In this document: positions 14,995 through 36,299 of the stretch, piece after piece
How the letters are laid out: every line of letters starts with the position of its first letter
Numbering within the stretch: position 1 is the first letter of the stretch
Source: Ferrovum sp. JA12
GTDB taxonomy: Bacteria > Pseudomonadota > Gammaproteobacteria > Burkholderiales > Ferrovaceae
NCBI RefSeq assembly: GCF_001431705.1
Contig: NZ_LJWX01000002.1
Span: 248,001-312,000 of the forward strand
DNA: 64,000 bases
Direction of reading: 5' to 3'
Notes under the pieces: model-generated
Databases searched by the model: none
What the model was told of the DNA's origin: nothing
The model's input: only the letters and a program-made list of their open reading frames with translations
Position numbers and translations under genes: made by a program

Positions 14995-15133
14995 GATAAA
15001 AAGCCTGTAGGCCAGGCTTATGTGTAGTCTGCAGCAAATGATGATGTGCTTGCGCTGAACAACAAAATCCATCCCATGAAGGAAAGGCACTTTGCCAGAG
15101 TCTTCGAGTACAGTTCGCATTTATTGACAGCAT

Positions 15134-16469
15134 GAGGGTGTCCTGGATTTTGTGTAAACGGAATTCATTAATGTTGCGGCATCCGGTCGTCAAACTGGAT
15201 AGTAAACCGGTTTAGCGCCGCCTTCCAATCCCGAATGGGCATCGTCCATTTTTTGCTGATGTTTTGGATCGCCAGGTAGAACAGTTTCAGCAGCGCCTCA
15301 TCAGTCGGAAACGAGCCACGATTCTTGGTGATTTTCCTCAGGCTCATGTTCAGCGATTCAATCGCATTAGTGGTGTAAATCACCCGGCGAATCTCCGGCG
15401 GATAGTCAAAGAACGGCGTGATGCGTATCCAGTTGCGCCGCCAGCTTTGGCCAATCGCCGGATAGTCTTTGTCCCACTTTTCCTCAAACGCCGTCAACTG
15501 CCGCTCCGCCTCATCCGCCGTGGCCGCGGTGTAAATGGCGCGCAGATCAGCGGCCACCTCTTTGCGCAGTTTCCAACCGACGTAATTCAGGCTGTAGCGC
15601 ACCATATGTACGATACAAAGCTGAACGGCGGTCTTGGGAAACACGGTTTCAATGGCTTCCGGGAAGCCCTTCAGCCCATCCACGCAGGCGATGAAGATGT
15701 CTTGCACACCACGATTCTTCAATTCCGTGACCACCTGTAGCCAGAACTTGGCGCCTTCCGTTTGGGCGATCCAGATACCCAGTAATTCCTTCTCTCCATC
15801 GAGCTTGATGCCCAGCGCCAGATAGACTGCTTTAACGCGCACTGCGCCGTTATCCCGCACTTTTACATGAATACAATCCATATAAACAATTGGATACAGC
15901 GCATCCAGCGGCCGGGATTGCCACGCTTTGACTTCTTCGATGACGGCATCGGTCACCGCTGAAATCAGACTGGGCGACACCTCTGTGCCATACATTTCTT
16001 CCAGATGACCCTGAATCTCACGCACCGTCATGCCACGACCGTACAAGGACAAAATCTTGTCGTCAAAGTCTGTCCAGCGGGTTTGATGTTTGGGGATCAG
16101 TTGCGGCTCAAAGCTGCTTTGCCGGTCGCGCGGAATTTCGATAGGCAATTCGCCAAACTCACCTTTGAGCGTCTTGCGGCTGGTGCCATTACGGGCGTTG
16201 CCAGCGGTATTGGCGATGGGCTCATGCTTGTCATGCCCAAGGTGGGCTGCCATCTCGGCTTGCAGCGCACGTTCCACGACAGCCTTGGTGAGCTGTTTAA
16301 GCAAGCCATGCTCGCCCAGTATATCTTCGGGTTTCTGGTAGCCGGCCAGCAGTTGGTCAATCAAATCAGGCGAGGGGGATTTCTTTGTTACGGTCATGTT
16401 CACTTCCTTTTCAAAGTTAGGCAGATTTTCCTGCCAAATGACCGTTTACACAAAATTTCTTACACCCTC
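15134..16469 (-). mobile_element. IS256-family insertion sequence
   Basis: A 1336-bp element with matching ends. The left end begins GAGGGTGT and, after five variable bases, has ATTTTGTGTAAACGG. The right end read on the reverse strand shows the same two blocks with a different five-base spacer. One transposase gene fills it. The bases just outside the two ends do not match over 8-9 bp, so no target duplication is seen. This suggests an adjacent deletion or recombination after insertion. On its right it abuts the truncated drmA. Confidence 0.9.
15168..16403 (-). CDS. IS256-family (Mutator-type) transposase
   Basis: A 411-residue intact DDE transposase. Typical IS256 features are ALQAEMAAHLGHDKHE near residue 50, YPIVYMDCIHVKVRDNG (first catalytic Asp), CVDGLKGFPEAIETVFP (second Asp), and RRVIYTTNAIESLNMSLRK (region of the catalytic Glu). 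Full length for the family with no frameshift, so probably active. It is the only gene of the 1336-bp element. Confidence 0.95.
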   Translation of the reverse strand: MNMTVTKKSPSPDLIDQLLAGYQKPEDILGEHGLLKQLTKAVVERALQAEMAAHLGHDKHEPIANTAGNARNGTSRKTLKGEFGELPIEIPRDRQSSFEPQLIPKHQTRWTDFDDKILSLYGRGMTVREIQGHLEEMYGTEVSPSLISAVTDAVIEEVKAWQSRPLDALYPIVYMDCIHVKVRDNGAVRVKAVYLALGIKLDGEKELLGIWIAQTEGAKFWLQVVTELKNRGVQDIFIACVDGLKGFPEAIETVFPKTAVQLCIVHMVRYSLNYVGWKLRKEVAADLRAIYTAATADEAERQLTAFEEKWDKDYPAIGQSWRRNWIRITPFFDYPPEIRRVIYTTNAIESLNMSLRKITKNRGSFPTDEALLKLFYLAIQNISKKWTMPIRDWKAALNRFTIQFDDRMPQH

Positions 16470-17000
16470 CTCTATGGACAGAGCAAACCCAGAGATCGTA
16501 GTCATTTTGAACGATTCAGACCCTACCACCAGCAATTATACGCACAGGTTGAGCCAACCAGTGTCACTCCATTCAGTGCGCCGGCGGTAGAACGCTCCCT
16601 TCATGGCATTATTGTCTCAGCTGTGCGACAGTTTGGAATATTGAATGCTGAGTCAAGCAGTCCGGATCCCTTCCCGCTAGGCGAAAGTTCCGTGTTGCGA
16701 AATTTGGTTGACGAGATGATAGCGCAGCGCGTTGGAGTCGTAGCTCCGGAAGAATATGATTCAGTAATGGAACAACTGCAACTCCGCCTTGACCAGTGGC
16801 AAAAATGGCAACCGAGCGAGTATGGTGGTTTTGGAGCCGCACCTGAAGATCCTCCTTTGCTGCACCCTGCAGGTAGTGCCGTGCCGCCAAGCTGGGATGG
16901 TCATAGCTGGCCGACCATGTCGTCGCTGCGAAATGTTGATGCTTCCTGTGAAGCAGAGATAACCCGATTTTTCAATCAACTTCAGGATGATCAAATATGA
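16470..17000 (+). pseudogene. drmA: 3' fragment of a DISARM drmA helicase gene
   Basis: The frame runs without a start straight out of the IS256 end. It begins LYGQSKPRDRSHFERFRPYH and continues LYAQVEPTSVTPFSAPAVER, the C-terminal helicase region of DrmA-type SF2 proteins from DISARM. About 176 residues remain; the Walker motifs and most of the helicase are lost. The stop overlaps the drmB start (ATGA), showing the original operon order drmA-drmB. It cannot make a helicase. Confidence 0.8.
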
Positions 17001-19138
17001 GCCGCCCAGTAAGAAGGTCGCAAGCAATTTCGCCTTTTGGTATTGGGGCATTGGTGGACTTTCCAGGTCCTGTGTCGCTCATTCACGCTGGCTTAGATGC
17101 TTGGCCATTCAAGGAGGGTGAGCCGGATCACCGGGAGTTTATCATCGATGATGAGAAACGCCTTTCCAGTAGGTTGGACGTAGACTACTTTGTACAGCCA
17201 GCAGACTTTCGGCAGCCCACACGAGGGCAGGATGCAACACAGTCCAACCTTAATTTAAAGTTGCCATTTCTCAGATTTCCTCTTTGGCATGTTTGTCCTC
17301 GATGTGGGCGAATGCATCTCGCACGATATCAAGACAGCACACCTCCGATCTGTAGAGGGCCAATCGGCTCTGGAGGTGGAATTGGGTCTGAACATTCACC
17401 AAGAAAAACTGTTCAAGTTCGCTTTGTAGGCGCATGCAAAAAGGGGCATCTGCAGGATTTTCCATGGTTGGAATGGTTGTTCAAGCAACCAGATCCACTG
17501 TGGGAACCGGAGGGTAATCTGCGCTGGCTCCGTATGAGAAGTACCGGCAGTGCTTCGCTTACTGGGGTGGAAGTGGCAGCAGAGGAAAGGTTGCCGAATG
17601 GAGGAATAAAGGTTATTGAGAAACGTACACTTGCTGGTGCATTTCAGGGGGATGAATCAGGTGAATCACAGCGAGCATTTACAAAAATTGGCGTGCTGTG
17701 TGGGGGACACAATCCTGCATTGGGAATTGGCAAGAACGGCCCGAATCCGTTACTAGGTTGTGGCCAAGAAATATACCCTCTGCTTCGTGGTGCCTCAAAT
17801 CTTTACTTCCCTCAGGTTGTCAGCTCGATTTATATCCCAAACATTGATGACAAAAATCTTGATCAGGAAATTTTGGATATCCTTGATGACCATTTGCTGA
17901 AGTCTATTCTGTTACTCAGCGCACAAGATGCGGACAATGGCATGATTTCAGCGAAGGCGGCTCGGAACGCTCTGAAGAAATATTACCCAGAGTCAAGCGT
18001 GGATGCGGAAGTTTTGGCAGAGGCTGCTAACAGACACATCTTGAAAGATATTCTGCTGGAAAACAGGACGGTGCAACAATACTTATCACAAAAAATAAAG
18101 GTGTCGACTGACAAGCAGCTCACGCTTGATATGGTGAGCTCGGCAATTAAAAACCATTATGGGGATTGGGGAATTGACCCATTGGTGTTGTTGGGTCCGT
18201 TGTCTGATTGGTTTGAAGGGCAGGGTGTGGATGCTGATCAAGGAACGGCGGGGCTTCAACAGGATATTTTAGTTGAGTCTAACTATAGAATGGAAGAATA
18301 CCGAGTCTTTTGTCGAGATATTCAGGAGGGCTACCCAAAGGCCAATCTGTTGATACGAAGCTCCGAGATAGCTAGTTATGGTGATCTAGTCCGATCCTCG
18401 TTTGAGCGCATATCTTTGTTGCACAAGTTAAGAGAGACGCGGGCATTTGTGGGGTTTTCTAGAATTTATCCTGGTGACGACCTCACGCAGGAAGAGCGAT
18501 GGCATCTGATAGCGCTTGAAAAGAAGAAATGGCTCCCAGCTGTTGTTGTAAGAGGAGAGGGCATCTTCCTGAAGTTCAGGGAAGATCGACTTGGCGCTTG
18601 GATTGAAAAATTCGGGGCTCTTCATGAAGGTAGATTTGCATTGATTAACCACCAGATGGGTGAGTTACGGGAGCGAAGACATCAGCAGCCAAAACTGATT
18701 TCGCCGAAACATGTTCTGATCCACACATTCGCGCACCTGCTGATTAACGAATTAGTATATGAATGTGGCTATGGCTCAGCTTCTCTTAGAGAGCGGATAT
18801 ATTCTGTGGATGGAGAGTATCCCATGTCTGGTGTATTGATCTATACGGCTGCGGGGGACTCGGAGGGTTCAATGGGTGGCCTTGTTCAAATGGGGCAACC
18901 AGGCTATCTTGAAGCTGTTGTAGCTAGGGCACTTGAGAAAGCGCGTTGGTGTTCCAGCGATCCGGTCTGTATTGAAAGCAAAGGGCAAGGCCCAGATAAC
19001 TGTAATCTGGCAGCATGTCATTCCTGTGCTCTGCTGCCGGAAACTTCATGCGAAGAGCATAATCGATTACTCGATCGTGGAGTGGTAATTGGCACCATCG
19101 AAAGTCCATCCAGTGGGTTCTTTTTGGGGGATGAGTAA
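16997..19138 (+). CDS. drmB: DrmB-like DUF1998 protein of DISARM
   Basis: A full-length 713-residue protein. It starts with the DrmB hallmark RRSQAISPFGIGALVDFPG, which precedes the zinc-binding CPRCGRMH and the CKKGHLQDFPW segment. The C-terminal DUF1998 region holds HTFAHLLINELVYECGY and a Cys-rich end (CNLAACHSCALLPETSCEEH). In DISARM, DrmB forms a DNA-binding complex with the helicase DrmA. Here drmA survives only as a 3' fragment, and no drmC, drmE or drmD lies next to it. The protein is probably an orphan. Confidence 0.85.
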   Translation: MSRPVRRSQAISPFGIGALVDFPGPVSLIHAGLDAWPFKEGEPDHREFIIDDEKRLSSRLDVDYFVQPADFRQPTRGQDATQSNLNLKLPFLRFPLWHVCPRCGRMHLARYQDSTPPICRGPIGSGGGIGSEHSPRKTVQVRFVGACKKGHLQDFPWLEWLFKQPDPLWEPEGNLRWLRMRSTGSASLTGVEVAAEERLPNGGIKVIEKRTLAGAFQGDESGESQRAFTKIGVLCGGHNPALGIGKNGPNPLLGCGQEIYPLLRGASNLYFPQVVSSIYIPNIDDKNLDQEILDILDDHLLKSILLLSAQDADNGMISAKAARNALKKYYPESSVDAEVLAEAANRHILKDILLENRTVQQYLSQKIKVSTDKQLTLDMVSSAIKNHYGDWGIDPLVLLGPLSDWFEGQGVDADQGTAGLQQDILVESNYRMEEYRVFCRDIQEGYPKANLLIRSSEIASYGDLVRSSFERISLLHKLRETRAFVGFSRIYPGDDLTQEERWHLIALEKKKWLPAVVVRGEGIFLKFREDRLGAWIEKFGALHEGRFALINHQMGELRERRHQQPKLISPKHVLIHTFAHLLINELVYECGYGSASLRERIYSVDGEYPMSGVLIYTAAGDSEGSMGGLVQMGQPGYLEAVVARALEKARWCSSDPVCIESKGQGPDNCNLAACHSCALLPETSCEEHNRLLDRGVVIGTIESPSSGFFLGDE

Positions 19139-19151
19139 ATGAAATCAGGTT

Positions 19152-19310
19152 GTTAAATTGCATTCTGAATTGCCCCATTTTTTGCACTTTAGTCTGACCC
19201 ACCAAATTTGATAATTGGTCATGTGGTACGACGGGTTGCATTTCTTGAGGAGGGTCAATATTTAATGCAAACATTCAGACAAAGTGGCTCAATCCAGAAT
19301 GCAATTTAAC
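19152..19310. repeat. MITE-like repeat, copy 1 (159 bp)
   Basis: A 159-bp unit with terminal inverted repeats: GTTAAATTGCATTCTG at the left and its near-perfect complement at the right (20 of 21 bases match). Inside are TGACCCACC-type motifs like those of IS21-family ends. No coding capacity. A copy of identical length lies at 21611. This copy sits 13 bp after drmB and directly cuts a GHKL-ATPase gene. Confidence 0.8.
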
Positions 19311-19440
19311 ACAAAGTCATTCTGGATCTCGAGAGTGGTTCAAAATCCAAGATTATTGTTAGCGACAACGGGTGTGGCATGTCAATTGCAGACCTAGAGG
19401 AGAAATGGCTAGTTCTTGTTACGCACTCTACTTGCCCCGG
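19311..19440 (+). pseudogene. Fragment of a GHKL (MutL/MORC-like) ATPase gene
   Basis: Immediately after the MITE the plus strand reads VILDLESGSKSKIIVSDNGC, then GMSIADLEEKWLVL in one frame. DNGCGM is the second ATP-binding motif of GHKL ATPases, and the following DLEEKW is typical of the MutL/MORC/Hsp90-like branch found in restriction clusters. Both ends are missing: the MITE removes the N-terminus and the methylase gene occupies the rest. GHKL ATPases accompany Dcm and Vsr genes in several defence cassettes, which fits the neighbours here. Confidence 0.65.
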
Positions 19441-19447
19441 AATCATT

Positions 19448-21001
19448 TCAATTTCCGAGTAACTGGAAGACTATTTTTGCAATTTTATTTGCAAGCAAAG
19501 GTGGTACGGCATTGCCAACTTGGTGAAATTGTTGTGTTCGGTTTCCCTGGAAAAAATAGTTGTCCGGGAAGGTCTGTAGACGTGCAGCTTCACGCACTGT
19601 CAGGCTACGACACTGTGCAGGGTCTGGATGGATAAAGTAATGCCCATCTTTCGAAATGTGACTGGTTACGGTTGTGGATGGTCGTCCTTTGAGTTGCACC
19701 CTGAAACGGTCAGAAAATTTCCCGCTTTCCCAGTTGTTATGGTTTGGTCGTAGTCCTTCCAGATCAAATTGTTGATGCCCCTTCGGGGAAAGTCCATAGG
19801 CTTCGGCATATGCAGCTGCATAAATATAACGTCTTAAGTCACTCGACATATGTCCTCTGGACTCATGATTCAGTAAAACTTTCAGATTGTTATCACGGTA
19901 CCACTCATCTAGTTTTGAGTTGAGTATTGCCGGTATATTTTCACTATTCAACCTTAATGCTCCAAAATCAAGATCAGAGTCTATTGAATGTTTCAGTCTA
20001 TCCAGAACTGCTGTTAATTCATGCAATTCGCTTCTCTTTGAGGCTTCTGCATGAAGTTCTTGCAAATGCTGTTTAACTGTTGACGTCCATTTTTCGGCAT
20101 TGTCACCCCCTTTGCTCAAACGGCTGCGTAAGCGGGGGAGTGTTCCTATCACATCCTGAACAGTAAATTCTGAAACTTTATCTAAAAGCTTGGGATTGAC
20201 ATTTATATCTTCCCGGATGCCAATAAGGATGACTCTATGTCGGGCCTGCGGAATGCCAAATTCTTCAGTGCGAATGATGAAATCATGTGCGTTGATATCT
20301 TGTGGATCCATACCTTTTTCAAAGTAAGTAGGAACAGCCAGAGAGTGAATTTTGTAGCTTCGGCCTGGTGACTTTCCGAGCGCTAAGTTAGGGTCAGAAA
20401 GGTCTCGCAATATGGTATTAAAGATTTTCTGGCCATCAATTGTAGATGACAGAATACCTTTGACATTCTCCATCACAAAAACGGCAGGCTGATATTCCTG
20501 AATAATTCGAAGATACTCGCGGTAAAGATAATGTCGATGATCCTGTTCTGGACAATAATCGGTCTTTCCTCTGTTCCTTGAACGTCCTACCAGTGAATAA
20601 GCCTGACAGGGTGGTCCGCCAATCAATATCCATGGCTTTGAAGTGTTAATTTTTTCCTTATCTAGTATCGTGTCGAGTTCAAGATTACCTGTGGTTGTCC
20701 CCAAAGTGATACGACGTGCCTCTTTATTTGCTTCTTCCCATGCAGGCAAGGATTTGTCATCATATGGCGTATCCGATTCACCATTACAGAACCGGTAGTA
20801 ACTTTCCAGTGACGAACTGTCTTGCGTTTTCAAAATTCGGAAGAAAGATCGCAGTTTCAGAGTTTGATGCGCTGACGTCTCCATTTCCGCTGAAACTAAT
20901 ATTTTGAATGCGTTGCCATTATCAAGTGCTGAAAAGCCCTCTCCCAGACCGCCGGGGCCAGCGAAAAGATCAACTATGGGGATAGGTTCGTCTTGGGGCA
21001 T
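19448..21001 (-). CDS. DNA (cytosine-5) methyltransferase
   Basis: A 517-residue enzyme with the m5C-methylase motifs in order: motif I VDLFAGPGGLGEGF at residue 9, motif IV WILIGGPPCQAYSLVGRSR with the catalytic Cys, motif VI FVMENVKGILS, motif VIII QARHRVILIG, and motif X region RTQQFHQVGNAVPPLLA. The target-recognition region between VIII and IX is long. It is divergent from vsr with 46 bp between. Its recognition site cannot be read from sequence. It may be a methylase of a Dcm/Vsr/GHKL cassette or a DrmMII-like DISARM methylase; orientation and Vsr favour the former. Confidence 0.92.
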   Translation of the reverse strand: MPQDEPIPIVDLFAGPGGLGEGFSALDNGNAFKILVSAEMETSAHQTLKLRSFFRILKTQDSSSLESYYRFCNGESDTPYDDKSLPAWEEANKEARRITLGTTTGNLELDTILDKEKINTSKPWILIGGPPCQAYSLVGRSRNRGKTDYCPEQDHRHYLYREYLRIIQEYQPAVFVMENVKGILSSTIDGQKIFNTILRDLSDPNLALGKSPGRSYKIHSLAVPTYFEKGMDPQDINAHDFIIRTEEFGIPQARHRVILIGIREDINVNPKLLDKVSEFTVQDVIGTLPRLRSRLSKGGDNAEKWTSTVKQHLQELHAEASKRSELHELTAVLDRLKHSIDSDLDFGALRLNSENIPAILNSKLDEWYRDNNLKVLLNHESRGHMSSDLRRYIYAAAYAEAYGLSPKGHQQFDLEGLRPNHNNWESGKFSDRFRVQLKGRPSTTVTSHISKDGHYFIHPDPAQCRSLTVREAARLQTFPDNYFFQGNRTQQFHQVGNAVPPLLANKIAKIVFQLLGN

Positions 21002-21047
21002 ATGCTGCTATATTAACTTTAATTAGAGTGTGGCCAGGATACCAGGA

Positions 21048-21497
21048 ATGACCGATATAGTCGATAGTAAAACACGATCTCGCATGATGTCTGGAATTAA
21101 AAGTAAAGATACCGCGCCGGAAATGGTAGTGCGACGATTCCTTCATAGGGCAGGTTTACGTTATCGGCTGCATGATTATACCCTGCCTGGGTGTCCTGAT
21201 CTTGTTTTACCGCGCTATCGCACAGTGATATTCGTTAATGGCTGTTTCTGGCACCGACATCCGGGTTGTAAACTTGCCTATTCACCAAAGAATAATTTTG
21301 AAATATGGCAGAAAAAATTTGATCGGAATGTTTTACGTGATCAACGTAATATTGAAACGCTTATAAAGTCAGGGTGGCGGGTTATAGTCGTATGGGAATG
21401 CGGATTACGTAAAAATCCTTATAACGTTCTGATAGCACTGGTTGATGAAGTCAGGTGTAAGCACACGCAGTCTATGGTTCAAATATCCTCTTCATGA
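21048..21497 (+). CDS. vsr: Very-short-patch repair endonuclease Vsr
   Basis: About 149 residues. It starts MTDIVDSKTRSRMMSGIKSK, the usual Vsr N-terminus, which is why ATG 21048 is preferred over the in-frame GTG at 21030. The catalytic core LPGCPDLVLPRYRTVIFVNG and the zinc/active-site CFWHRHPGCK are present, and RNIETLIKSGWRVIVVWECG ends the fold. Vsr nicks next to T:G mismatches made by deamination of 5-methylcytosine, so it is a natural partner of the adjacent methylase. The gene looks intact. Confidence 0.92.
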   Translation: MTDIVDSKTRSRMMSGIKSKDTAPEMVVRRFLHRAGLRYRLHDYTLPGCPDLVLPRYRTVIFVNGCFWHRHPGCKLAYSPKNNFEIWQKKFDRNVLRDQRNIETLIKSGWRVIVVWECGLRKNPYNVLIALVDEVRCKHTQSMVQISSS

Positions 21498-21580: not shown

Positions 21581-21610
21581 TGGAATGTTTCCGAGAAAAT
21601 ATACGATGAT

Positions 21611-21769
21611 GTTAACTTGCACCACAGATTGACCCATCTTTTGTACTATAGCTTGACCCACCAAATTTGATAGCTGCTCATGTGGCACGACGGGTTGAAT
21701 TTTTTGAGGCGGGTCAATATTTGATGAAAATGTTCAGACAAAGTGGCTCAATTCGGAATGCAATTTAAC
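21611..21769. repeat. MITE-like repeat, copy 2 (159 bp)
   Basis: Same length and orientation as the copy at 19152. Similarity is clear across the unit, strongest at the right end (TTCAGACAAAGTGGCTCAAT shared exactly). The left inverted repeat has drifted (GTTAACTTGCACC), the right one is intact. The two copies enclose the GHKL fragment, methylase and vsr, so this 2.3-kb block could have moved as a unit or been trimmed by recombination between copies. Confidence 0.78.
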
Positions 21770-21824: not shown

Positions 21825-21899
21825 GCCGCCATAGTTTAATGGATAAAACAAGGGTTTCCTAAACCTTAGCTCCAGGTTCGACTCCTGGTGGCGGCACCA
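21825..21899 (+). tRNA. tRNA-Arg (anticodon CCU), CCA encoded
   Basis: A complete cloverleaf: acceptor GCCGCCA pairs with TGGCGGC, D-stem GTTT/AAAC, anticodon stem AGGGT/ACCTT with loop TTCCTAA (anticodon CCT, reading AGG), T-stem CCAGG/CCTGG with TTCGACT loop, discriminator A and encoded CCA. It follows the second MITE by 55 bp and lies within the accessory region, next to a broken tRNA-Arg with the same anticodon. Confidence 0.9.
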
Positions 21900-22091
21900 A
21901 ACCGCACCTCATTCTTCTTTTCAAAAATACCATACAATCACCCACTAATATCTTGCTATATAAGTTTTTAAAAAAATGGGACAAATTTGGGACAATCCTG
22001 TACTAGATTAGGGTGGATTTGAAGGGATGTGAGTGGACTTAACTGATTGATTTTTATTGAAAAACGTATATTTCTGTATGCCCCTTATCCA
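21900..22091. other. Stretch between the two tRNA-Arg sequences
   Basis: About 190 AT-rich bases without a supported gene. It contains a doubled GGGACAA motif (TGGGACAAATTTGGGACAA), of a kind often seen beside tRNA-integrated elements, but no integrase gene remains. Confidence 0.45.
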
Positions 22092-22131
22092 CTTAGGAGG
22101 GGGTCGCTCTATCCACTGAGCTACCGGGGCC
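22092..22131 (-). pseudogene. 5' half of a disrupted tRNA-Arg (CCU) gene
   Basis: On the reverse strand from 22131 the sequence reads as positions 1-39 of a tRNA: acceptor GGCCCCG, D-arm GCTCAGTGGATAGAGC, then GACCCCCTCCTAAG with a CCT anticodon. After the anticodon loop the homology stops; the 3' anticodon stem, T-arm and acceptor 3' strand are absent. This is the usual scar of integration into an anticodon loop. The intact tRNA-Arg(CCU) 190 bp away probably replaces its function. Confidence 0.75.
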
Positions 22132-27162: not shown

Positions 27163-28068
27163 GTGGTCAACAAACGTGTCGCTGCTGCACTTGACGACCT
27201 GACGCAGACGCAAAGAGAGCGACTTTTCTACATTGAAGTCAAAGCTTTCTTCTGTGGCGATCTGACCCGCGCGGATATTGAGAGACGCTTTGGGGTCAAA
27301 CCTGCAGCTTCAGCACGCGACCTAAGCACATACCGTCGCCTGGCACCACTCAACCTCTTCTACGACGCAGGTCACCGCAAGTACGCGACGACCGACCGCT
27401 TCACACCCTTGTTTGAACACTCAGCAGAGCGCGTTCTCACCTGGTTCCGAGCAGGCTTTGGCGACAACATGGACCAGAAGCTCAAGCGCTCTGTCCCCTG
27501 TGAAAGCGCCAGCGACCTGGTCAAACCCGAAATCGAAACACTGGCGACGCTCACACGTGCCATTGCGGGAAGACGCCAGGTCAAGGTCAACTACCTGTCT
27601 TTGACCTCTGGAGCCTCAACAAAGACGCTGTGCCCTCTAGCCTTGGCCGACACAGGCCTGCGTTGGCATTTGCGCGCATATGACCGTGAGCGAGGCCGCT
27701 TTGCCGACTTTGCATTGACTCGGATCGTCAAGGCCAAGGCCATTGATCAGCCCATCCCGGTCGAAGAACAAATTGAATCAGATGTGCAGTGGGCACGGCT
27801 GGTCCATATCGAGCTGGTGCCCCACCCAGGCATTGCCCACCCCAAGGCGATCGAGGCCGACTTCATGATGCACAACGGCATGCTGGCGCTTGACATGCGA
27901 GCTCCACTCGTCGGTTATGCCTTAAGACGCTGGTCGGTAGATTGCTCGGCCAAGCACAGCCTTGACCCCAAAGAGCACCATCTTTGGCTGAAGAATTCAC
28001 AAACACTTTACGGCGTTGAAAGCGCTGCTTTGGCTCCCGGATACAACAACACGGTTGATTCAAAGTGA
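27163..28068 (+). CDS. WYL-domain transcriptional regulator, BrxR/CapW-like
   Basis: 301 residues. The N-terminal winged helix (RLFYIEVKAFFCGDLTRADI, then ERRFGVKPAASARDLSTYRR) is followed by the WYL domain from about residue 125 (GRRQVKVNYLSLTSG, ALADTGLRWHLRAYD) and a C-terminal extension (RRWSVDCSAKH). This three-part plan is that of BrxR/CapW repressors that control BREX, CBASS and other defence operons. The GTG start has GGTGGAG upstream. The long helicase gene follows after 60 bp. It is likely the local repressor, responding to a nucleic-acid-type ligand. Confidence 0.85.
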   Translation: MVNKRVAAALDDLTQTQRERLFYIEVKAFFCGDLTRADIERRFGVKPAASARDLSTYRRLAPLNLFYDAGHRKYATTDRFTPLFEHSAERVLTWFRAGFGDNMDQKLKRSVPCESASDLVKPEIETLATLTRAIAGRRQVKVNYLSLTSGASTKTLCPLALADTGLRWHLRAYDRERGRFADFALTRIVKAKAIDQPIPVEEQIESDVQWARLVHIELVPHPGIAHPKAIEADFMMHNGMLALDMRAPLVGYALRRWSVDCSAKHSLDPKEHHLWLKNSQTLYGVESAALAPGYNNTVDSK

Positions 28069-28128
28069 TGAATGCCATGAACTGCTGCAAAAAACATAAA
28101 ACAAAATTCAATCAAAAGGGGCCACGTC

Positions 28129-31100
28129 ATGGACGTTTTTGACCTTCGACAACAGATCGTTCAAGACTATGCCAATTTCGCACGATCTTTTACGAGAGTT
28201 CGAGCCGATGATTTGAAGCGTCAGATTGACGAGATCTACGCGAAAGATCAATTTTGGCCTGAGCCCTTACTGCAGATCACCCCCTACTACGAGCGAGGTG
28301 CATCCTTAGATGAACTTGCTGCATCAGGCGAAGTAACCTCAACTACAGCCTCTATTTTTAGAGTACCCGATGAACCAGAATTACCACTGCAATTGCACAC
28401 TCACCAGGTGCAAGCCCTAGCAGCGGCAAAGCAGGGTCGAAGTTATGTAGTCACCACTGGCACGGGTTCGGGTAAATCGCTTTGTTTTTTTGTGCCCATC
28501 ATCGACGCAATCTTGCGGGCCAAAGCGACTGATAAAACAAAGAAGACAAGAGCGATCATCGTTTATCCAATGAACGCTTTGGCAAACAGCCAAATGGAAG
28601 AACTTGAGAAATTTCTCAAGCATGTCCAGCCAGCGCAGCCAATCACGTTCGCTAGATACACAGGCCAGGAAGGCGATGAGGAGCGCAAAAGCGTCGCAGC
28701 TAATCCGCCAGATATCTTATTGACCAACTTCATGATGTTGGAATATCTGATGACTCGCCAAGATGCAACAGACCAACAAGTTATCGGGCATTGTCAGAAC
28801 CTGCGCTATCTTGTTCTTGATGAACTACATACATATCGCGGACGTCAAGGTGCAGATGTTGCATTGCTTGTTCGCCGCATTCGAGCGCTACTCGCTCCCG
28901 AAGGATTGCAGTGCATCGGTACATCTGCAACGATGGCTAGTGGTTCAGCAGAAGACCGCAGTACCGCTGTAGCTGCTGTCGCATCAAAACTATTTGGCGT
29001 ACCCGTTCTACCATCAGACATCATCGGCGAGACCCTTGTTCGCGCAACAAATCCCAGTCTGCATAACGATTCCGTAAAAAACCAACTTGCACCGGCAATT
29101 GAGGCGGGCTTGTCACCCTCAATTACTGATGCCGAACTTGTTTTGCACCCGCTTTCAATCTGGATTGAAACTCGCCTTGGACTCACTTGGGAGGATGCCA
29201 AATGGGTTCGGGCAAGACCCCAAACGCTACAAAATGCCGCGCAGTGGTTGTCTGAAGATTCAGGACTAGCGCATGAAAAGTGTTCTCATTTCCTCCGCCA
29301 ATTTTTACTAGTGACTTCTCTGGCCGAGGCGGATCGCTCAGGTGGACATAACACCGGTAAGCGCGGTTTTTTTGCATTCAAGTTACATCAATTTATCTCG
29401 GGTGCAGGTACAGCCTACGCAACGGTTGAGGCACCTGGAAAGCGTACGCTCACAGTTAATGCTCAACAGTTCCTGCCGGATCAACCTGAAAAGCGACTCT
29501 ATCCCGTTCACTTTTGCAGGGATTGTGGTCAGGAATACCACCCCATTTTTCTTGAACTGGGTGCGCAAGCACAGGTTCTTCCGCGTGAAATTGATGATGT
29601 GCCGCCAACGATCAAGCGCAGCGAAGAATCGGAGGGATTAGATCGTCCCCAATATGGCTTTTTGATGCCTGAACCTCAGGACAGCCAGTTCGAGTTTTCA
29701 GGAAAAGATGAAGACTACCCAGACGCTTGGCTTGAAGAAGATCGCCACGGCGATATCCGACTTAAAAAAGATGCTCGAAAAAACAAAGCTGAACGAATCG
29801 CTGTGGAGCCCACAGGCCAGATTGGTTCTGGAACTTACGCCTGGTTTATTCCGGGGAAATTCCGTTTTTGCTTGAACTGCAAGGTAGTCCATTCGGCACA
29901 AGGTAAGGACAAAAACCGACTTGCAGCACTGTCTGCCGAGGGGAGATCGTCAGCGACCACTCTCCTTACGCACTCAGTACTACGTTGGATGCATTCTCAA
30001 GAATCAATACCGGTCGATCGCCGCAAGATGCTGGGGTTTACCGACAACAGACAAGACGCGGCTCTTCAGGCAGGACACTTTAACGACTTCTTATTTGTCA
30101 GTCTTTTCAGGGCAGCATTTTTGGGGGCTGTGAAAGCTGCTGGCGCTGAGGGACTCTCTGCAGATCGACTGGGCCTTGCGGTATTCAAGTCATTAGGTTT
30201 TGAGCGCTTAGGAGAAGCGGGTCTTCGCTCAGAGTGGCTGCTGGACGCAGAACTGCAAGGCGCAAATTTTGTGAATGCACAGAAAGCAATGCGTCAAGTG
30301 CTTGCCTACCGCGCATGGTTTGATCAGCGTCGTGGGTGGCGGTTTACCAATCCCAACCTTGAACAACTAGGTCTTGTTCGCGTTGAATATATTGGACTCG
30401 ACGACCTTTGCAGTAATGACCTCAATTTCGCAGATGCCCCTCCTTTATTGGCCGGGTCCAGTCCAGAAGTTCGAAAGCGTGCCTACCGAGTGTTGTTGGA
30501 TGTCATGCGTCAAGGTTTAGCGCTTGACCCAGAAGTTTTAGAGCCTGCTGAGCAGGAAACCTTGCGCAGTCGATCTCTCAATACGCTTAGATCACCCTGG
30601 GGGCTCGGTAGAGAAGAACAAATGCGTACTGCACGTTACCTGCTGGAGTTCCCTCCCGCACGTCGTGAAAATTCGCTAGCGGATGAAGATAAATTATTAA
30701 GGGCTGGCTTCCTCTCAGGCCTTGGGCGTGATTTGCGTAAGCCCGATTTGTGGGAGAGGTCAGACGCACGAACACTTAAGCGTCCCGACTATCAAAAGCT
30801 ATTGAGTTGCATGTTGCAAGTTGCAGGCAAAGCTGGCCTGGTTGCACAGGTTTCAACTCCGTTCGGTACGACACCAGGTTGGCAACTTAAGAATGCCTGT
30901 ATTGAATTTCACCTTGGCGAAGGCAGGTCTGAGCGAGGCGGTATGGACAACGCCTTTTTCAGGTCGTTGTACCTCAACTTGTCTCAGGCGATTTCATCCG
31001 ACTTTCACTATTTTGGTTTTGAAGCGAGAGAGCACACTGCGCAGGTCGATAAAAACCGGCGCGAGGCCCGCGAAATGCGCTTTCGTTATGGCTCAGAAGA

Positions 31101-33423
31101 CAAAAAGAGACTTGCTGAAAACGCCAAAAAATTGAACGAGCTAGGAGAGCATCAACGGTTCTTACCGGTTCTCTTTTGCTCTCCCACTATGGAGCTTGGC
31201 GTCGATATTTCAGCATTGAACACGGTGTACTTGCGAAACATGCCGCCAACGCCAGCCAACTATGCGCAGCGCAGTGGTCGCGCAGGGCGAAGTGGTATGC
31301 CTGCTTTGGTGCTGACCTACTGCGCAGCGCGCAGTCCACATGATCAATACTTTTTTGCCGATCCTCCTGGCATGGTTCACGGTGAGGTTCGAGCCCCCAC
31401 CCTAGACCTGGGCAATGAAGAGTTAGTGCGAAGTCATTTGCAGGCTGTTTGGCTGGCATGTACCAACACGCCAATCAGCGCAGCAATCTCGGAGGTCGTT
31501 GAACCTAATGAAGAAAAAGACTTACCCCTTTATTCAACGGTAAGTGAGTCACTCGCCAAGCCAGAAATCGCTCCACTTGCTGCTGAGCGCATCAAGAAGG
31601 TTCTGGCCCTTTTACAAGTTGAACTCAACCCCGAAGATGCTCCATGGTTCCGTGGTACAGATGTTTTAACAAAAGACATTACTGATTTGGCGCTTAAACG
31701 CTTCAACGATGCCTTCGACCGTTGGCGTGAACTTTTCCGAAGTGCCGCTAGACAACGCGACCAGTCACGCCGAACAATGGATACACACAACTTGCCACAG
31801 CGTGAGCGGGATGCGGCTCGTTCCTTACACGCGCAAGCCATTGATCAACTCAACCTGTTACAACGGGGCTCAGACAGCTCAGCAAGCGATTTTTATACTT
31901 ATCGGTACCTTGCAACAGAGGCATTCCTACCTGGCTATAACTTCCCTCGCTTGCCATTAACTGCCTTTATTCCTGGTAGCGGCGACCGCAACACCAAAGG
32001 CGCATATCTTCAGCGTCCTCGATTTTTGGCCCTCTCCGAATTCGGACCAAGAAGTCTCGTGTATCACGAAGGTAGGGCATACAGGGTTACTGCCGCTCAG
32101 CTATCGACACGTGGTGAATCGGCAGCTGGCAGCATGCTCAATACGGATACAGCAACTATCTGCCGCAGTTGCGGTGGTGCACATTTCCATTCCGATCCTG
32201 CTGACCGTGGGCGCAGCCATTGCTGGGCGTGCGAGGCTCCACTAACAGACAACGCCGATATCGTTTTGAATCTGTACCGCATTGAAAACGTTCGCACTTC
32301 ACCGGCAGAGCGTATTACGGTAAATGATGAAGAACGTCAGCACCAAGGATTTGATCTACAAACGATTTTCAGGTGGGCTCGACGCGAAAGTGGCCATCCA
32401 GACGTACGGACAGTCAGGGCAGAAGATGCTGAGGGCGCAATCGCCACGCTTCGTTATGGACCAGGTGCTGAGATAAGCAGACTGAACAAAGGATTGCGTC
32501 GCCGTGCTAACCAGACTCAACACGGCTTTGCTGTGAACCCCTTGAATGGCAATTGGGCCAAGATGGATGAGGATGATGGCGCGGAACCGGATCCAACGCG
32601 AACTTCCAACCAGTTGATTGTTCCTTGGGTTATGGACCGAAAGAACGCGTTGCTGCTTCAGCTTTCAGAAGAAGGCGCACCTGAAATAACCGTTGCAACA
32701 GTTCAATACGCATTGAAGCGCGGCATTGAGTCTGTCTATCAACTGGAAGAATCCGAGCTACTGGCCGAGCCATTGCCAGACAGGAAGAATCGAAGTGGTG
32801 TGCTTTTTTACGAAGCCACTGAAGGCGGTGCTGGCGTATTAACTCGACTAGTGCATGACGAAGAGGCTGTGGCAAGGGTTGCATATGCAGCTCTTAAAGT
32901 ACTGCACTTTGATCTTCCAGCATACGGCGAGCCTCTTCCTGCCGCAGATCATTTGCATGACGTGAACGGAACAAAATGTGTAGCTGGCTGCTATCGCTGT
33001 GTTTTGTCTTATTACAACCAACCCGATCACTTGGTTATAGATAGGCGCGACAAGGCAGCACGTGCTTTGCTACTGCGTCTGGCAGGTGTCAAAACGCAAC
33101 TGCTTGCTGCAACTGATATCGGGCCGCCACCCAGTGCACAAGGAGCATCCAGTGATTCGTCAGAATCACCAACGGCAGCTTCTGCGGAATCTTTAATGGG
33201 ATTCAATGCGGCGAAGTTAGGACTTCCCGAGCCCAGTGAAACTGGCGCGACTTTGGCGGAGGTAGCCACTATTGCGCTTTGGCGAAGCAAACGAATTGCA
33301 TTGGTCTTGGAGGGCACATCGCCCAACCCATTGATCGATCGTGGCCTGGAGGTCGTTCTATGGCCGCTATCGCCTTCGGGCCAAGAGGAAGCTGTAAAAA
33401 AGCTCACCAGTCTACTTAATTGA
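28129..33423 (+). CDS. Giant SF2 helicase with C-terminal DUF1998 (DrmA/DrmB-like)
   Basis: 1764 residues. Walker A GTGSGKS is at 111-117 and a DEAH-type box DELH near 231. The C-terminal helicase motifs (ELGVDISALNTVYLRNMPPT and QRSGRAGRSG) lie near 1020-1050. Between them is a large insert with a zinc-type FCRDCGQEY near 461. Further Cys clusters are at about 1344 (CRSCGG ... CWACEA), and DUF1998 near 1600-1650 holds GTKCVAGCYRCVLSYY. This arrangement puts DrmA-like helicase and DrmB-like DUF1998 features in one chain. It is related to MrfA/YprA-type helicases but more than twice as long. First enzyme of the defence operon; 11 bp to the next gene. Confidence 0.85.
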   Translation: MDVFDLRQQIVQDYANFARSFTRVRADDLKRQIDEIYAKDQFWPEPLLQITPYYERGASLDELAASGEVTSTTASIFRVPDEPELPLQLHTHQVQALAAAKQGRSYVVTTGTGSGKSLCFFVPIIDAILRAKATDKTKKTRAIIVYPMNALANSQMEELEKFLKHVQPAQPITFARYTGQEGDEERKSVAANPPDILLTNFMMLEYLMTRQDATDQQVIGHCQNLRYLVLDELHTYRGRQGADVALLVRRIRALLAPEGLQCIGTSATMASGSAEDRSTAVAAVASKLFGVPVLPSDIIGETLVRATNPSLHNDSVKNQLAPAIEAGLSPSITDAELVLHPLSIWIETRLGLTWEDAKWVRARPQTLQNAAQWLSEDSGLAHEKCSHFLRQFLLVTSLAEADRSGGHNTGKRGFFAFKLHQFISGAGTAYATVEAPGKRTLTVNAQQFLPDQPEKRLYPVHFCRDCGQEYHPIFLELGAQAQVLPREIDDVPPTIKRSEESEGLDRPQYGFLMPEPQDSQFEFSGKDEDYPDAWLEEDRHGDIRLKKDARKNKAERIAVEPTGQIGSGTYAWFIPGKFRFCLNCKVVHSAQGKDKNRLAALSAEGRSSATTLLTHSVLRWMHSQESIPVDRRKMLGFTDNRQDAALQAGHFNDFLFVSLFRAAFLGAVKAAGAEGLSADRLGLAVFKSLGFERLGEAGLRSEWLLDAELQGANFVNAQKAMRQVLAYRAWFDQRRGWRFTNPNLEQLGLVRVEYIGLDDLCSNDLNFADAPPLLAGSSPEVRKRAYRVLLDVMRQGLALDPEVLEPAEQETLRSRSLNTLRSPWGLGREEQMRTARYLLEFPPARRENSLADEDKLLRAGFLSGLGRDLRKPDLWERSDARTLKRPDYQKLLSCMLQVAGKAGLVAQVSTPFGTTPGWQLKNACIEFHLGEGRSERGGMDNAFFRSLYLNLSQAISSDFHYFGFEAREHTAQVDKNRREAREMRFRYGSEDKKRLAENAKKLNELGEHQRFLPVLFCSPTMELGVDISALNTVYLRNMPPTPANYAQRSGRAGRSGMPALVLTYCAARSPHDQYFFADPPGMVHGEVRAPTLDLGNEELVRSHLQAVWLACTNTPISAAISEVVEPNEEKDLPLYSTVSESLAKPEIAPLAAERIKKVLALLQVELNPEDAPWFRGTDVLTKDITDLALKRFNDAFDRWRELFRSAARQRDQSRRTMDTHNLPQRERDAARSLHAQAIDQLNLLQRGSDSSASDFYTYRYLATEAFLPGYNFPRLPLTAFIPGSGDRNTKGAYLQRPRFLALSEFGPRSLVYHEGRAYRVTAAQLSTRGESAAGSMLNTDTATICRSCGGAHFHSDPADRGRSHCWACEAPLTDNADIVLNLYRIENVRTSPAERITVNDEERQHQGFDLQTIFRWARRESGHPDVRTVRAEDAEGAIATLRYGPGAEISRLNKGLRRRANQTQHGFAVNPLNGNWAKMDEDDGAEPDPTRTSNQLIVPWVMDRKNALLLQLSEEGAPEITVATVQYALKRGIESVYQLEESELLAEPLPDRKNRSGVLFYEATEGGAGVLTRLVHDEEAVARVAYAALKVLHFDLPAYGEPLPAADHLHDVNGTKCVAGCYRCVLSYYNQPDHLVIDRRDKAARALLLRLAGVKTQLLAATDIGPPPSAQGASSDSSESPTAASAESLMGFNAAKLGLPEPSETGATLAEVATIALWRSKRIALVLEGTSPNPLIDRGLEVVLWPLSPSGQEEAVKKLTSLLN

Positions 33424-33434
33424 GAAAATAATTC

Positions 33435-36293
33435 ATGAGTGCAGTTTTATCTGATATTGGAAACGCCATCTTCCCGCCTGGCGCGTTGGTACGCGCACGC
33501 GGTCGGGAGTGGATCGTCATGCCTGGCAGCAGTCCTGAGCGTCTACGCCTTCGCCCATTGTCCGGAAGCGAGGCGGACGTCGCCGTAGTGTCTCCTGCGT
33601 TAGAAGCCACATTTGACCCGGTAGTGCCTGCGACCTTTCCATCTCCAACAGTCAAGCAGGCCGCAAATCACGAAGAATCGCTTCTCTTACGTGATGCCCT
33701 GCTGATGTCACTGCGAAGGGGTGCTGGTCCATTTCGAAGTTTTGGGAACTTGGCTTTTCAACCCCGCGCTTACCAATTAGTTCCGCTCCTGATGGCACTC
33801 AAACAGGATGTGATACGACTCTTAATTGCAGATGACGTTGGTATCGGAAAAACCATTGAGGCTGGGATGATCGCGCGCGAGCTTCTTGATAGAGGCGAAA
33901 TTCGACGATTTGCTGTTCTTTGCCCACCACACCTGGTCGAACAATGGATTCAGGAGCTCGACGACCGATTTCATATTAAAGCCGTTGCTGTCACTGCGGC
34001 AAGTGCAGCTCGGCTTGAGCGAGGTCTGCCAGTTACCGACAACATTTTTACAGTTCACCCACACACCGTTGTGAGCTTGGACTACATCAAGAGTGACCGT
34101 CGGCGAGGTGACTTTGCCAGTCGTTGCCCTGAGTTGGTAATTGTGGATGAGGCTCATACCTGCGCAGGTAGCGGTGGAGGCCGTCATCAACGTCATGATC
34201 TATTACGACTGCTTGCAACAGACGAGCAGCGACACATGCTTTTTCTAACAGCGACCCCTCACTCCGGGGACGAAGACAGTTTTCACAGTCTGCTTGGACT
34301 ACTGCACACCGATTTCCAACAACTGGGTAGCGTGACAGGCACCGCCCGCGATGAGTTGCGCAGACGCTTATCGGTTCACTTTGTGCAGCGCCGTCGCCAA
34401 GATATCAACGAATGGAACGATGAGGGTGTTTTTCCCCGTCGAGAAACAACCGACCTCCCATACAAATTGAGCGGTGGATGGGGCGTCTTCTTTGATGCTG
34501 TCTTGGACTATTGTTCAGAAGTTGTCGAGCGTGCAGGCACAGACCAACGCCGCCAAAGATTGAATTTCTGGGGCACTTTAGCCTTGATGCGTAGCGCGGC
34601 AAGTAGTCCGGCTGCCGCATTGCAATCTCTTCGAACGCGAATGGCCACGCAGGTAACTGATGCCGATGAGGACGTATTGCGAGAGCGGGTATTTGATGGT
34701 GCAGAGGACGCAATGGTGGACGATGACGCTGAGCTACCAGCTGACAGTGCAGATCCAGGACTGAAGGATCTGATAACCCAAGCGCAAACACTTGCGGGTG
34801 AAGGTGGTGACCCAAAACTTGCCGCTTTGCGCAACCATTTAGAAAAAGAACTCCTTAACAAGGGCTTTGCCCCTGTTGTTTTTTGCCGCTACATCGCAAC
34901 AGCGCACTACCTCCATCAACACCTGAAAAGTAGATTTCCAGGTGTAACAGTAGGAGTGGTGACCGGCGAATTAGCTCCTGAGGAGCGAAAAGCCGTAGTC
35001 GCCGAACTTGGCGAGGCCGATCGCCCCATGCTGATTGCGACAGATTGCATGTCAGAAGGTATCAATCTGCAAGAGCATTTCAATGCCGTCGTTCATTACG
35101 ACTTGAGCTGGAATCCTACCCGTCACGAGCAGCGTGAAGGACGCGTCGATCGTTTTGGTCAAGAAAGTCGCGTCGTGCGTGCCACGCTGATGTACGGACA
35201 GAACAATCCTGTTGATGCAGTTGTTTTGAAGGTCATATTGCGCAAGGCCAAAAAGATTCGCGAAGACCTAGGGGTCCCCGTCCCATTGCCAGACAACGAT
35301 CACTCACTAACCCAAGCGCTCATGCAAGCAGTACTCAGTGGCCAGCGCGGTCGTCAAAAGCAGGAAACGTTTGACTTTGATGATCTCCCGGCTTTTCAGC
35401 AGCTTGATGTCGCTTGGACGGATATGGCTGAGCGCGCGAAGAAAAATCGCACCGTCTTTGCTCAAAATCGAATCAAGCCCGAAGACGTTCTGCCTGAATG
35501 GAAAAAAATGCAAGCAGCTTTGGGCAACTCCGACGATGTGCAGCGATTTACACAGCGAGCGCTGCGCCGTCTGGGCGGCGCTTTGGAGGCCAGAAGTCCA
35601 ACTGGAAACAAAGGATACCGGGCACCGCTCGCAAATTTACCTGAAGACTTACGCGAGCGAATGTTAGCTGACGGGATCAGCGGCACTGTCGGGTTGAGCT
35701 TCACTGTACCGGCCCCAGTGGGCACGAGATTCGTCCATCGCAGCCACCCGTTGGTAAGCACGCTAGCCGAAGGCTTACTTGAACGCACTCTGGCAGATGC
35801 TGGTCTCGAGCAAGAACGCAATATGACCGACCCTGCCATGCTCGGGCGAACTGGTTGCTGGGTAAGCACCACTGTGCAATCCCTAACCACTGTCCTGATG
35901 CTTCGACTTCGCCATCAGTTGAGCAGCGCAGATGCCCGTGGCGGCGACACACTTTTAGTCGAAGAAGCCATTGCTGTTGCATTGCGATCGGTCGATGGCG
36001 GCAAGCGCTTTGAAATACTGTCTGGAGATGAGCCGCTTCAATGGCTCACCGCGCCACCAACTGAGACCATAGATGACCGTACAAGAGAGGCACGCGTATC
36101 TGGCGCTTTGGCTCAGCAAGACCAATGGATGCCAGTTGTTGAAAATTTTGCCCGCGAGCGCTCTGAATTGTTGCTTGCAGACCATCGAAGGGTACGAGAA
36201 GCGTCCAGATCAAAAGGTCGCTACGAAGTGACGCCTTTGTTGCCAGTAGATGTAATTGGCGTGTTTGTCTTGCTTCCGGCTTTGGGGCTTTGA
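33435..36293 (+). CDS. SNF2-family helicase, DrmD-like
   Basis: 952 residues. SNF2 motifs: LLIADDVGIGKTIEAGM (about 129-145), LVIVDEAHTCAG near 235, LFLTATPHSGDEDSF, and in the second lobe IATDCMSEGINLQEHFNAVV, then HYDLSWNPTRHEQREGRVDR. This is the arrangement of DrmD of class 1 DISARM and of related phage-defence SNF2 proteins (HepA/RapA-like). It would translocate on duplex DNA using ATP. The gene is complete and 6 bp before the methylase gene, so one operon. Confidence 0.87.
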   Translation: MSAVLSDIGNAIFPPGALVRARGREWIVMPGSSPERLRLRPLSGSEADVAVVSPALEATFDPVVPATFPSPTVKQAANHEESLLLRDALLMSLRRGAGPFRSFGNLAFQPRAYQLVPLLMALKQDVIRLLIADDVGIGKTIEAGMIARELLDRGEIRRFAVLCPPHLVEQWIQELDDRFHIKAVAVTAASAARLERGLPVTDNIFTVHPHTVVSLDYIKSDRRRGDFASRCPELVIVDEAHTCAGSGGGRHQRHDLLRLLATDEQRHMLFLTATPHSGDEDSFHSLLGLLHTDFQQLGSVTGTARDELRRRLSVHFVQRRRQDINEWNDEGVFPRRETTDLPYKLSGGWGVFFDAVLDYCSEVVERAGTDQRRQRLNFWGTLALMRSAASSPAAALQSLRTRMATQVTDADEDVLRERVFDGAEDAMVDDDAELPADSADPGLKDLITQAQTLAGEGGDPKLAALRNHLEKELLNKGFAPVVFCRYIATAHYLHQHLKSRFPGVTVGVVTGELAPEERKAVVAELGEADRPMLIATDCMSEGINLQEHFNAVVHYDLSWNPTRHEQREGRVDRFGQESRVVRATLMYGQNNPVDAVVLKVILRKAKKIREDLGVPVPLPDNDHSLTQALMQAVLSGQRGRQKQETFDFDDLPAFQQLDVAWTDMAERAKKNRTVFAQNRIKPEDVLPEWKKMQAALGNSDDVQRFTQRALRRLGGALEARSPTGNKGYRAPLANLPEDLRERMLADGISGTVGLSFTVPAPVGTRFVHRSHPLVSTLAEGLLERTLADAGLEQERNMTDPAMLGRTGCWVSTTVQSLTTVLMLRLRHQLSSADARGGDTLLVEEAIAVALRSVDGGKRFEILSGDEPLQWLTAPPTETIDDRTREARVSGALAQQDQWMPVVENFARERSELLLADHRRVREASRSKGRYEVTPLLPVDVIGVFVLLPALGL

Positions 36294-36299
36294 ATCGCC

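What the first reader, a model, noticed from the sequence alone, without database searches (positions are those of the whole stretch)
16470..19138. Wreck of a second, more canonical DISARM locus
The drmA 3' end reads straight out of an IS256 terminus and overlaps an intact drmB start. No other DISARM gene remains. One genome segment thus holds a dying DISARM and, 8 kb away, a full DISARM-like operon, which suggests replacement of one by the other or serial acquisition.
Basis: partly seen in the sequence, partly recalled or inferred. Interest (0 to 1): 0.6.

Follow-up and report, generated by a model that had tools for sequence, protein, structure and literature searches.

The report
Broken DISARM-like defence locus, two genes
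A bacterial genome keeps two genes of a broken phage-defence system of an uncommon DISARM-like kind: one cut short next to a jumping gene, the other whole but without its partner, and the intact neighbouring defence operon is a different system at a different site.

Summary
Frame 16470-17000 is the last 176 codons of a drmA. It starts exactly where an IS256 copy ends and overlaps an intact drmB (16997-19138). All helicase motifs of drmA are gone, and no other piece of it was found in the genome.

Three corrections. (1) It is not the wreck of a "more canonical" DISARM. Seven complete relatives share one cassette: unknown gene, DrmE-like gene, NERD-UvrD helicase, drmA, drmB. None has a detectable drmC. 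Their DrmB form a clade of their own. (2) A DrmMII-like methyltransferase and a Vsr nuclease lie just downstream, but they are not its partners. With the tRNA-Arg beside them they match, at 95% DNA identity, the end of a tRNA-Arg island in a drmB-free genome, where they accompany a Z1/AIPR restriction system. So this spot holds remnants of two defence systems joined at a 160-bp repeat. (3) The operon 8 kb away matches the published ARMADA Type I gene order. It sits at a second site, beyond a 3-kb block that same-genus genomes keep. Replacement of one by the other is therefore not supported; independent acquisition is.

A modest but clean case of defence-gene decay that also points to a NERD-bearing DISARM-like variant.

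The parts
15134..16469 (-). IS256-family element, 28-bp imperfect terminal repeats, no target-site duplication (flanks GACAGCAT / CTCTATGG)
   Evidence: Inverted repeat I3; flanks; Transposase_mut 1.8e-123; two other full copies in the genome at 100% identity by the search table, one of them with an 8-bp duplication
16470..17000 (+). drmA 3' stub, 176 codons plus stop; lacks Walker A, DELH box and motif VI
   Evidence: motif positions 548, 783 and 1037 of 1228 in the intact relative, stub starts at 1053
16997..19138 (+). drmB, intact, 713 aa, MrfA-type Zn-binding (DUF1998/MZB) domain kept
   Evidence: NF038324 383.9 bits against cut-off 240; MZB PF09369; best solved relative 7s9v chain B, DrmB
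19151..19310 (.). 160-bp repeat with 31-bp inverted ends, copy 1, at the drmB / island junction
   Evidence: further copies in the G188 island
19313..19432 (+). Relic that reads like the ATP-binding region of a GHKL/MORC-type ATPase (...SDNGCGMSIADLEEKW...); approximate ends
   Evidence: Read; same relic at L052 8982-9080, 94% over 33 aa. The family label is recalled from the motif, not scored by a profile
19448..21001 (-). C5-cytosine methyltransferase, 517 aa; belongs with the Z1/AIPR-type system, not with this drmAB
   Evidence: 97% identical to the G188 protein; 95.2% DNA identity over 19312-22124; tree
21030..21497 (+). Vsr endonuclease, 155 aa, partner of the methyltransferase
   Evidence: PF03852, TIGR00632 135.7 bits against 97.85
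21610..21769 (.). 160-bp repeat, copy 2 (84% to copy 1, same orientation)
21825..21899 (+). Island-borne tRNA-Arg (CCT anticodon)
   Evidence: ARAGORN; also in the G188 island
22089..22131 (-). 5' part of the ancestral tRNA-Arg (CCT), cut just after the anticodon
   Evidence: Compared with G001-G003; no 3' part found in the window with up to 7 mismatches
27163..41059 (+). Separate insert: WYL regulator, then an ARMADA Type I-like operon (YprA/DruE-like helicase 28129, BrxHII/DrmD-like helicase 33435, PglX/DrmMI-like methyltransferase 36300, HNH nuclease 40265); not part of the wreck
   Evidence: gene order as in PMC12458937; insert absent in 3 same-genus genomes

Best explanation
This is a dead remnant of a class-2-like DISARM variant: drmB is intact and only the last 176 of about 1,228 drmA codons remain. 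Shown: the break coincides with an IS256 end, that IS copy lacks a target-site duplication, the rest of drmA was not found in the genome, and the region right of drmB is the end of a different tRNA-Arg island (Z1/AIPR-type restriction system) joined through a 160-bp repeat. Inferred: an IS256-linked deletion (adjacent deletion, or recombination between IS copies) removed the front of drmA and the upstream genes (unknown gene, DrmE-like gene, NERD-UvrD helicase). A repeat-linked rearrangement joined the drmB side to the end of the restriction island and removed most of that system, leaving its methyltransferase and Vsr. In the intact relatives DrmA and DrmB would act as the translocating DNA sensor (as DrmAB in DISARM) and the NERD-UvrD protein would be the nuclease in place of DrmC. 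Here, without a helicase, DrmB cannot do this. The ARMADA-like operon nearby is a separate acquisition.
For: Profile and pairwise matches of the stub and of DrmB. IS boundary at exactly 16469/16470, no duplication against an 8-bp duplication at the copy in L062. Single drmB, no other drmA. Seven complete relatives with one gene order. 95.2% DNA identity of 19312-22124 to G188, which has no drmB. The methyltransferase tree puts the window with G188 and G297, not with the partners of its nearest DrmB relatives L029-L031. Both inserts absent in 3 of 3 same-genus genomes.
Against: No genome with the unbroken version of this very locus was found, so the deletion and its cause are inferred. A second IS256 copy (L063) also lacks a duplication, so missing duplications are not rare here. 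DrmB is still fully open, which would also fit a recent or continuing use. A C5-methyltransferase is linked to 6 of 7 intact relatives (plus one weak, partial case), so a methyltransferase beside drmB is what one would expect of its own system too.
Confidence: 0.85

Rival explanations
1. The C5-methyltransferase and Vsr are the DISARM system's own partners (DrmMII plus Vsr), merely inverted, so that four genes of one system survive.
For: Best PADLOC hit is DrmMII. C5-methyltransferase next to the cassette in 6 of 7 complete relatives and Vsr in 5 of 7. In L030 and L031 both directly follow drmB.
Against: 95.2% DNA identity over 2.8 kb with a Z1/AIPR island in G188, which lacks drmB. In the tree the window sits with G188 (100/99) and then G297, while the partners of its nearest DrmB relatives are only 46-47% identical and fall elsewhere. 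A repeat that also occurs in the G188 island lies between drmB and the pair.
Confidence: 0.12
2. Drm genes and the Z1 system once formed one composite island at this tRNA-Arg, both later eroded, rather than two islands joined by a rearrangement.
For: AIPR, C5-methyltransferase and Vsr occur with both kinds of system. The 160-bp repeats occur only here in this genome and several times in the G188 island.
Against: The Z1 gene was found in none of the 7 genomes with complete drm loci (1 of 9 genomes searched has it, G188); several of the 7 are incomplete metagenome assemblies.
Confidence: 0.3
3. The second operon replaced the first at the same site.
For: Both are YprA/DUF1998-helicase systems within 8 kb.
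Against: The two inserts are separated by conserved core genes (copper protein, 22591 gene, ABC-F) that lie side by side without inserts in G001-G003.
Confidence: 0.03

Closest known systems
DISARM class 2 (DrmMII, DrmE, DrmA, DrmB, DrmC; class make-up partly recalled); Lactiplantibacillus plasmid pMK02 as a related example
   Same: Separate DrmA helicase and DrmB (DUF1998) genes, overlapping; short-type DrmA (DrmAS best); C5-methyltransferase; a gene with a weak DrmE C-terminal match
   Different: No detectable DrmC; NERD-UvrD helicase upstream of drmA; an extra unknown gene; AIPR and Vsr linked; DrmB clade distinct
Rhodococcus opacus plasmid pROB02 locus (L087, annotated as hypothetical, hypothetical, NERD, helicase, DUF1998, Vsr ... 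C5-methyltransferase)
   Same: Same order: two unknown genes, NERD protein, DrmA, DrmB, with Vsr and methyltransferase near; its 507-aa protein aligns with the DrmE-like family (hhalign E 1e-5)
   Different: DrmB only 34% identical; NaeI-type and HNH nucleases in between
MORC/paraMORC restriction systems with Z1 helicase (Iyer 2008, PMC2292703; MZA in newer nomenclature)
   Same: The neighbouring methyltransferase and Vsr, and the GHKL-like relic, come from such a system; G188 has Z1, DUF4420, AIPR, methyltransferase and Vsr
   Different: In the window only methyltransferase and Vsr are intact; no Z1 gene found in the genome
ARMADA Type I (Bell 2025, PMC12458937)
   Same: The operon 8 kb downstream has YprA helicase, then BrxHII-like helicase, then PglX-like methyltransferase
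   Different: Extra HNH gene and WYL regulator; the C-terminal Vsr domain was not detected by Pfam; not related to the wreck

Membership tests
DISARM | DrmA helicase | tested here: not met
   In the window only the last 176 codons, no helicase motifs; met in 7 of 7 complete relatives
DISARM | DrmB (DUF1998) encoded separately next to drmA | tested here: met
   NF038324 383.9 bits above cut-off 240, overlapping the drmA stub
DISARM | DrmC phospholipase-D nuclease | tested here: not met
   No hit with two DrmC queries in the window or in the loci of 7 relatives; controls L022 and L023 hit themselves and each other. A distant DrmC could be missed. DrmC is reported as non-essential (PMC9142583, passages)
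DISARM | Associated DNA methyltransferase (DrmMI or DrmMII) | tested here: inconclusive
   A DrmMII-like gene is adjacent but by DNA and tree belongs to another system; linked in 6 of 7 relatives
DISARM | DrmE (class 2) | tested here: inconclusive
   Not in the window; in relatives the 520-560 aa gene matches DrmE_C below the curated cut-off of 27 bits (18.0, 25.9, 18.7, 26.4 bits in 4 of 4 scanned)
ARMADA Type I (operon 28129-41059) | Gene order YprA helicase, BrxHII-like helicase, PglX-like methyltransferase | tested here: met
   against the description in PMC12458937
ARMADA Type I (operon 28129-41059) | C-terminal Vsr-type nuclease on the YprA protein | tested here: inconclusive
   No Pfam match in the last 140 residues; no structure made
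ARMADA Type I (operon 28129-41059) | Place in the YprA tree and BrxA-like insertion | not tested
   No tree or model of this helicase was made
Z1/MORC restriction system (methyltransferase-Vsr segment) | Z1 helicase with DUF4420 nuclease and AIPR beside methyltransferase and Vsr | tested here: not met
   Present in G188, G297 and G128; in the window only methyltransferase, Vsr and a GHKL-like relic; no Z1 found in the genome

The most novel reading that the evidence does not exclude
The intact relatives of this wreck define a coherent DISARM-like class in which a NERD nuclease-UvrD helicase stands in for DrmC and a two-gene set (unknown gene plus DrmE-like gene) stands in for DrmE. Its modification part (C5-methyltransferase, Vsr, AIPR) is interchangeable with that of Z1/MORC restriction systems, so the same marking module is paired with two different DNA-processing engines. 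The window then shows two such systems broken at one tRNA-Arg site, with the marking module outliving its engines.
Probability: 0.35. Interest if true: 0.55.

Novelty: new variant of a known kind. Interest (0 to 1): 0.35.

Why it matters
It shows defence-gene turnover with identifiable pieces: an insertion sequence at the break, an orphan DrmB, and a methyltransferase-Vsr pair that survived its restriction system. It also warns annotation pipelines: profile hits would call drmB plus DrmMII plus a nearby helicase operon one or two DISARM systems, whereas the parts have three different origins. The intact relatives suggest a NERD-bearing DISARM-like variant that could be tested for phage defence and for whether NERD takes the role of DrmC.

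Tried and rejected
Rejected: the methyltransferase-Vsr pair as DISARM's own partner (first taken seriously, dropped). Rejected: replacement at one site. Rejected: a split drmA elsewhere, for example beside another IS256 copy. A promoter in or next to the IS256 end that could drive drmB: none found in 16300-17050 by a simple consensus scan. Split-DrmE idea (unknown gene = N-terminal part, DrmE-like gene = C-terminal part): only positional support. hhalign against the 801-aa protein of pMK02 gave E 0.29 and 0.17; the unknown gene matched nothing in Pfam at E 10 in 6 of 6 members. Its predicted model (pLDDT 83) had no PDB match at E 0.001 and a best VIA Z of 9.4 to DinG over 164 residues at 3.8 A, the rows being mostly RecA-like helicase domains; too weak to name a fold. 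A whole-genome search for drmC, drmD, NERD or the unknown genes in the own genome was not done. Papers: searched for DISARM with DrmA/DrmB, NERD/DrmE, Vsr/DrmMII and AIPR; I saw no description of this NERD cassette in the listings, in three of eight parts of PMC12458937, or in passages of PMC9142583; most subscription papers are not covered, so it may be in print.

Full report
What is there. The IS256-family element occupies 15134-16469 (28-bp ends; transposase 15168-16403 on the minus strand). Base 16470 opens a frame of 176 codons to a stop at 16998-17000 that matches the C-terminal end of DrmA: PADLOC PDLC02575 positions 665-824 of 837, NCBIfam DrmAS 998-1160 of 1165, residues 1053-1223 of 1228 of the G413 DrmA at 62% identity. 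In the intact relative the Walker A, DELH and motif VI elements lie at 548, 783 and 1037 (motif names are recalled), so all are lost here. drmB starts at 16997 inside the drmA stop (ATGA) and runs 713 codons without damage; it is above the curated cut-off for DrmB, and its only PDB relative by sequence is DrmB of 7s9v/7s9w. The open frame also runs back into the IS (to 16005), which is only an antisense reading of the transposase.

How it broke. The IS copy has no target-site duplication (GACAGCAT left, CTCTATGG right). Two other full copies, 100% identical by the search table (one has a one-base length difference, 99.9%), lie elsewhere; one of them (L062) has a clean 8-bp duplication CATCAACT and the other (L063) has none. 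A fourth, cut copy lies at a contig end. A search of the own genome with an intact DrmA returned the stub and two negligible hits to other helicase-like frames. An IS256-linked deletion is the simplest account, but no parent locus was found. Left of the IS lies a decayed IS3-type reading frame (family name recalled).

Complete relatives. In 399 genomes drawn from the order, 3 have a close DrmB (own genome, G069, G413); in 150 relatives 6 have any match, own genome included. A scan of the named genome collection with a three-sequence profile gave 6 loci, one of them the same as G413. The seven distinct complete loci (G069, G413, L029 Methylocaldum sp. 14B, L030, L031, L033, L034) all carry, in order and on one strand, an unknown gene of 319-340 aa, a gene of 520-560 aa, a NERD-UvrD helicase of about 590 aa, drmA and drmB (the unknown gene of L034 is recognised only with the L030 protein). 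Pfam finds NERD and UvrD_C_2 in the helicase of G413; the 520-560 aa gene matches DrmE_C below its cut-off in four of four members scanned. AIPR lies beside the cassette in 6 of 7 loci. A C5-methyltransferase is linked in 6 of 7 and Vsr in 5 of 7; L034 has only a partial, more distant methyltransferase match. DrmC was not detected in any of the seven loci, while the two comparison loci with DrmMI, L022 and L023, have it right after drmB. In a DrmB tree the window and the seven form one group (100/100) apart from G058, G079 and G256. These three are distant, long rows, so the tree shows separation, not the order of descent. Related arrangements with NERD, Vsr and methyltransferase exist on annotated plasmids of Rhodococcus and Rhizobium, so the variant is probably wider than these seven.

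The neighbouring methyltransferase and Vsr. PADLOC would call 19448-21001 DrmMII. But of 300 genomes of the order 15 have a close methyltransferase, own genome included. Of the 14 others only 3 have any DrmB match (G058, G069, G256). The best, G188, is 97% identical in protein, and window 19312-22124 matches it at 95.2% over 2,816 columns. That stretch covers the GHKL-like relic, methyltransferase, Vsr, second repeat, tRNA-Arg and the cut native tRNA-Arg. In G188 the island continues leftward with AIPR, DUF4420 and Z1; its Z1 protein shows DTLLQMGRWFG, which fits the DThhQXuRhFG motif given by Iyer 2008 (PMC2292703, passages). G297 and G128 have the same set, G068 part of it. The maximum-likelihood tree of 21 methyltransferases puts the window with G188 (100/99) and next with G297 (93/91); the methyltransferases of L029, L030 and L031, whose DrmB are the nearest to the window's, are 46-47% identical and lie in another part. 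So the pair is best read as the remnant of a second defence system. The break between the two remnants is exactly a copy of the 160-bp inverted-end repeat (19151-19310), which in this genome exists only here, twice, and in 40 kb of the G188 island four times.

The tRNA site. Three of three same-genus genomes have an intact tRNA-Arg (CCT) at this place and no DrmB. In the window only its first part remains (22089-22131, minus strand), cut just after the anticodon, and its second part was not found anywhere in the window. The island brings its own different tRNA-Arg (CCT) at 21825-21899. G188 shows the same cut. Whether the genome has yet another CCT tRNA could not be tested.

The other operon. 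27163-41059 holds WYL, a YprA/DruE-like helicase with DEAD and MZB domains in one protein, a BrxHII/DrmD-like helicase, a PglX/DrmMI-like methyltransferase and HNH. Bell and colleagues (PMC12458937; parts 1-3 of 8 read) name this order ARMADA Type I. Its C-terminal Vsr domain was not seen. It lies beyond the conserved block copper protein, 22591 gene, ABC-F (window 22089-25033), while the drm remnant lies before it; in G001-G003 the block is flanked by the 12805 gene and tRNA-Arg on one side and tRNA-Ser on the other. The GC content also differs: 0.487 for drmAB, 0.432 for the methyltransferase segment, 0.516 for the operon, 0.438-0.465 for three core stretches.

How it works, or worked. For DISARM, DrmAB is described as an autoinhibited complex that loads on 5'-overhang DNA and may recruit DrmC or other nucleases, with DrmC non-essential (PMC9142583, abstract and passages). 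By analogy (inference) the intact relatives of this locus would load DrmAB and use the NERD-UvrD protein to degrade DNA. In the window DrmB has no motor and cannot act this way. The surviving methyltransferase may still mark DNA; that is not shown.

Verdict. It was wrong about 'more canonical' and about replacement, and it missed the second wreck. The remnant itself is ordinary decay. The intact relatives and the chimeric make-up give it moderate interest.

Noticed in passing
window 21825-21899 and 22089-22131: An island cut the native tRNA-Arg (CCT) just after the anticodon and supplies its own tRNA-Arg (CCT) nearby in the other orientation; the same in G188. The lost 3' part is not in the window, so the island may no longer be able to leave without harm.
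   Followed up: partly
window 27163-41059: ARMADA Type I-like operon with an additional HNH gene and a WYL regulator, at a second insertion site.
   Followed up: partly
window 19151-19310 and 21610-21769; L052 902-1064, 11297-11431; L058 336-497, 10585-10759: 160-bp repeat with 31-bp inverted ends, MITE-like, in two copies in this genome and four in 40 kb of the G188 island.
   Followed up: partly
window 41317-41404: tRNA-Ser (CGA) is on the minus strand beyond the ARMADA-like operon, whereas in G001 the tRNA-Ser (CGA) follows ABC-F on the plus strand; a second case of a tRNA next to an insert being displaced or inverted.
   Followed up: no
window 25270-26225 and 14860-15130: Decayed reading frames that look like IS3-type transposase remnants (recalled, not scored).
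   Followed up: no
L030 2033-2998 and its homologues: The unknown first gene of the cassette has no family match; its model resembles RecA-like helicase domains weakly (best Z 9.4).
   Followed up: partly
L084 (G256): Another drmA-drmB locus with a NERD-type helicase directly after drmB, plus methyltransferase and Vsr, so NERD proteins accompany DISARM genes in more than one arrangement.
   Followed up: partly
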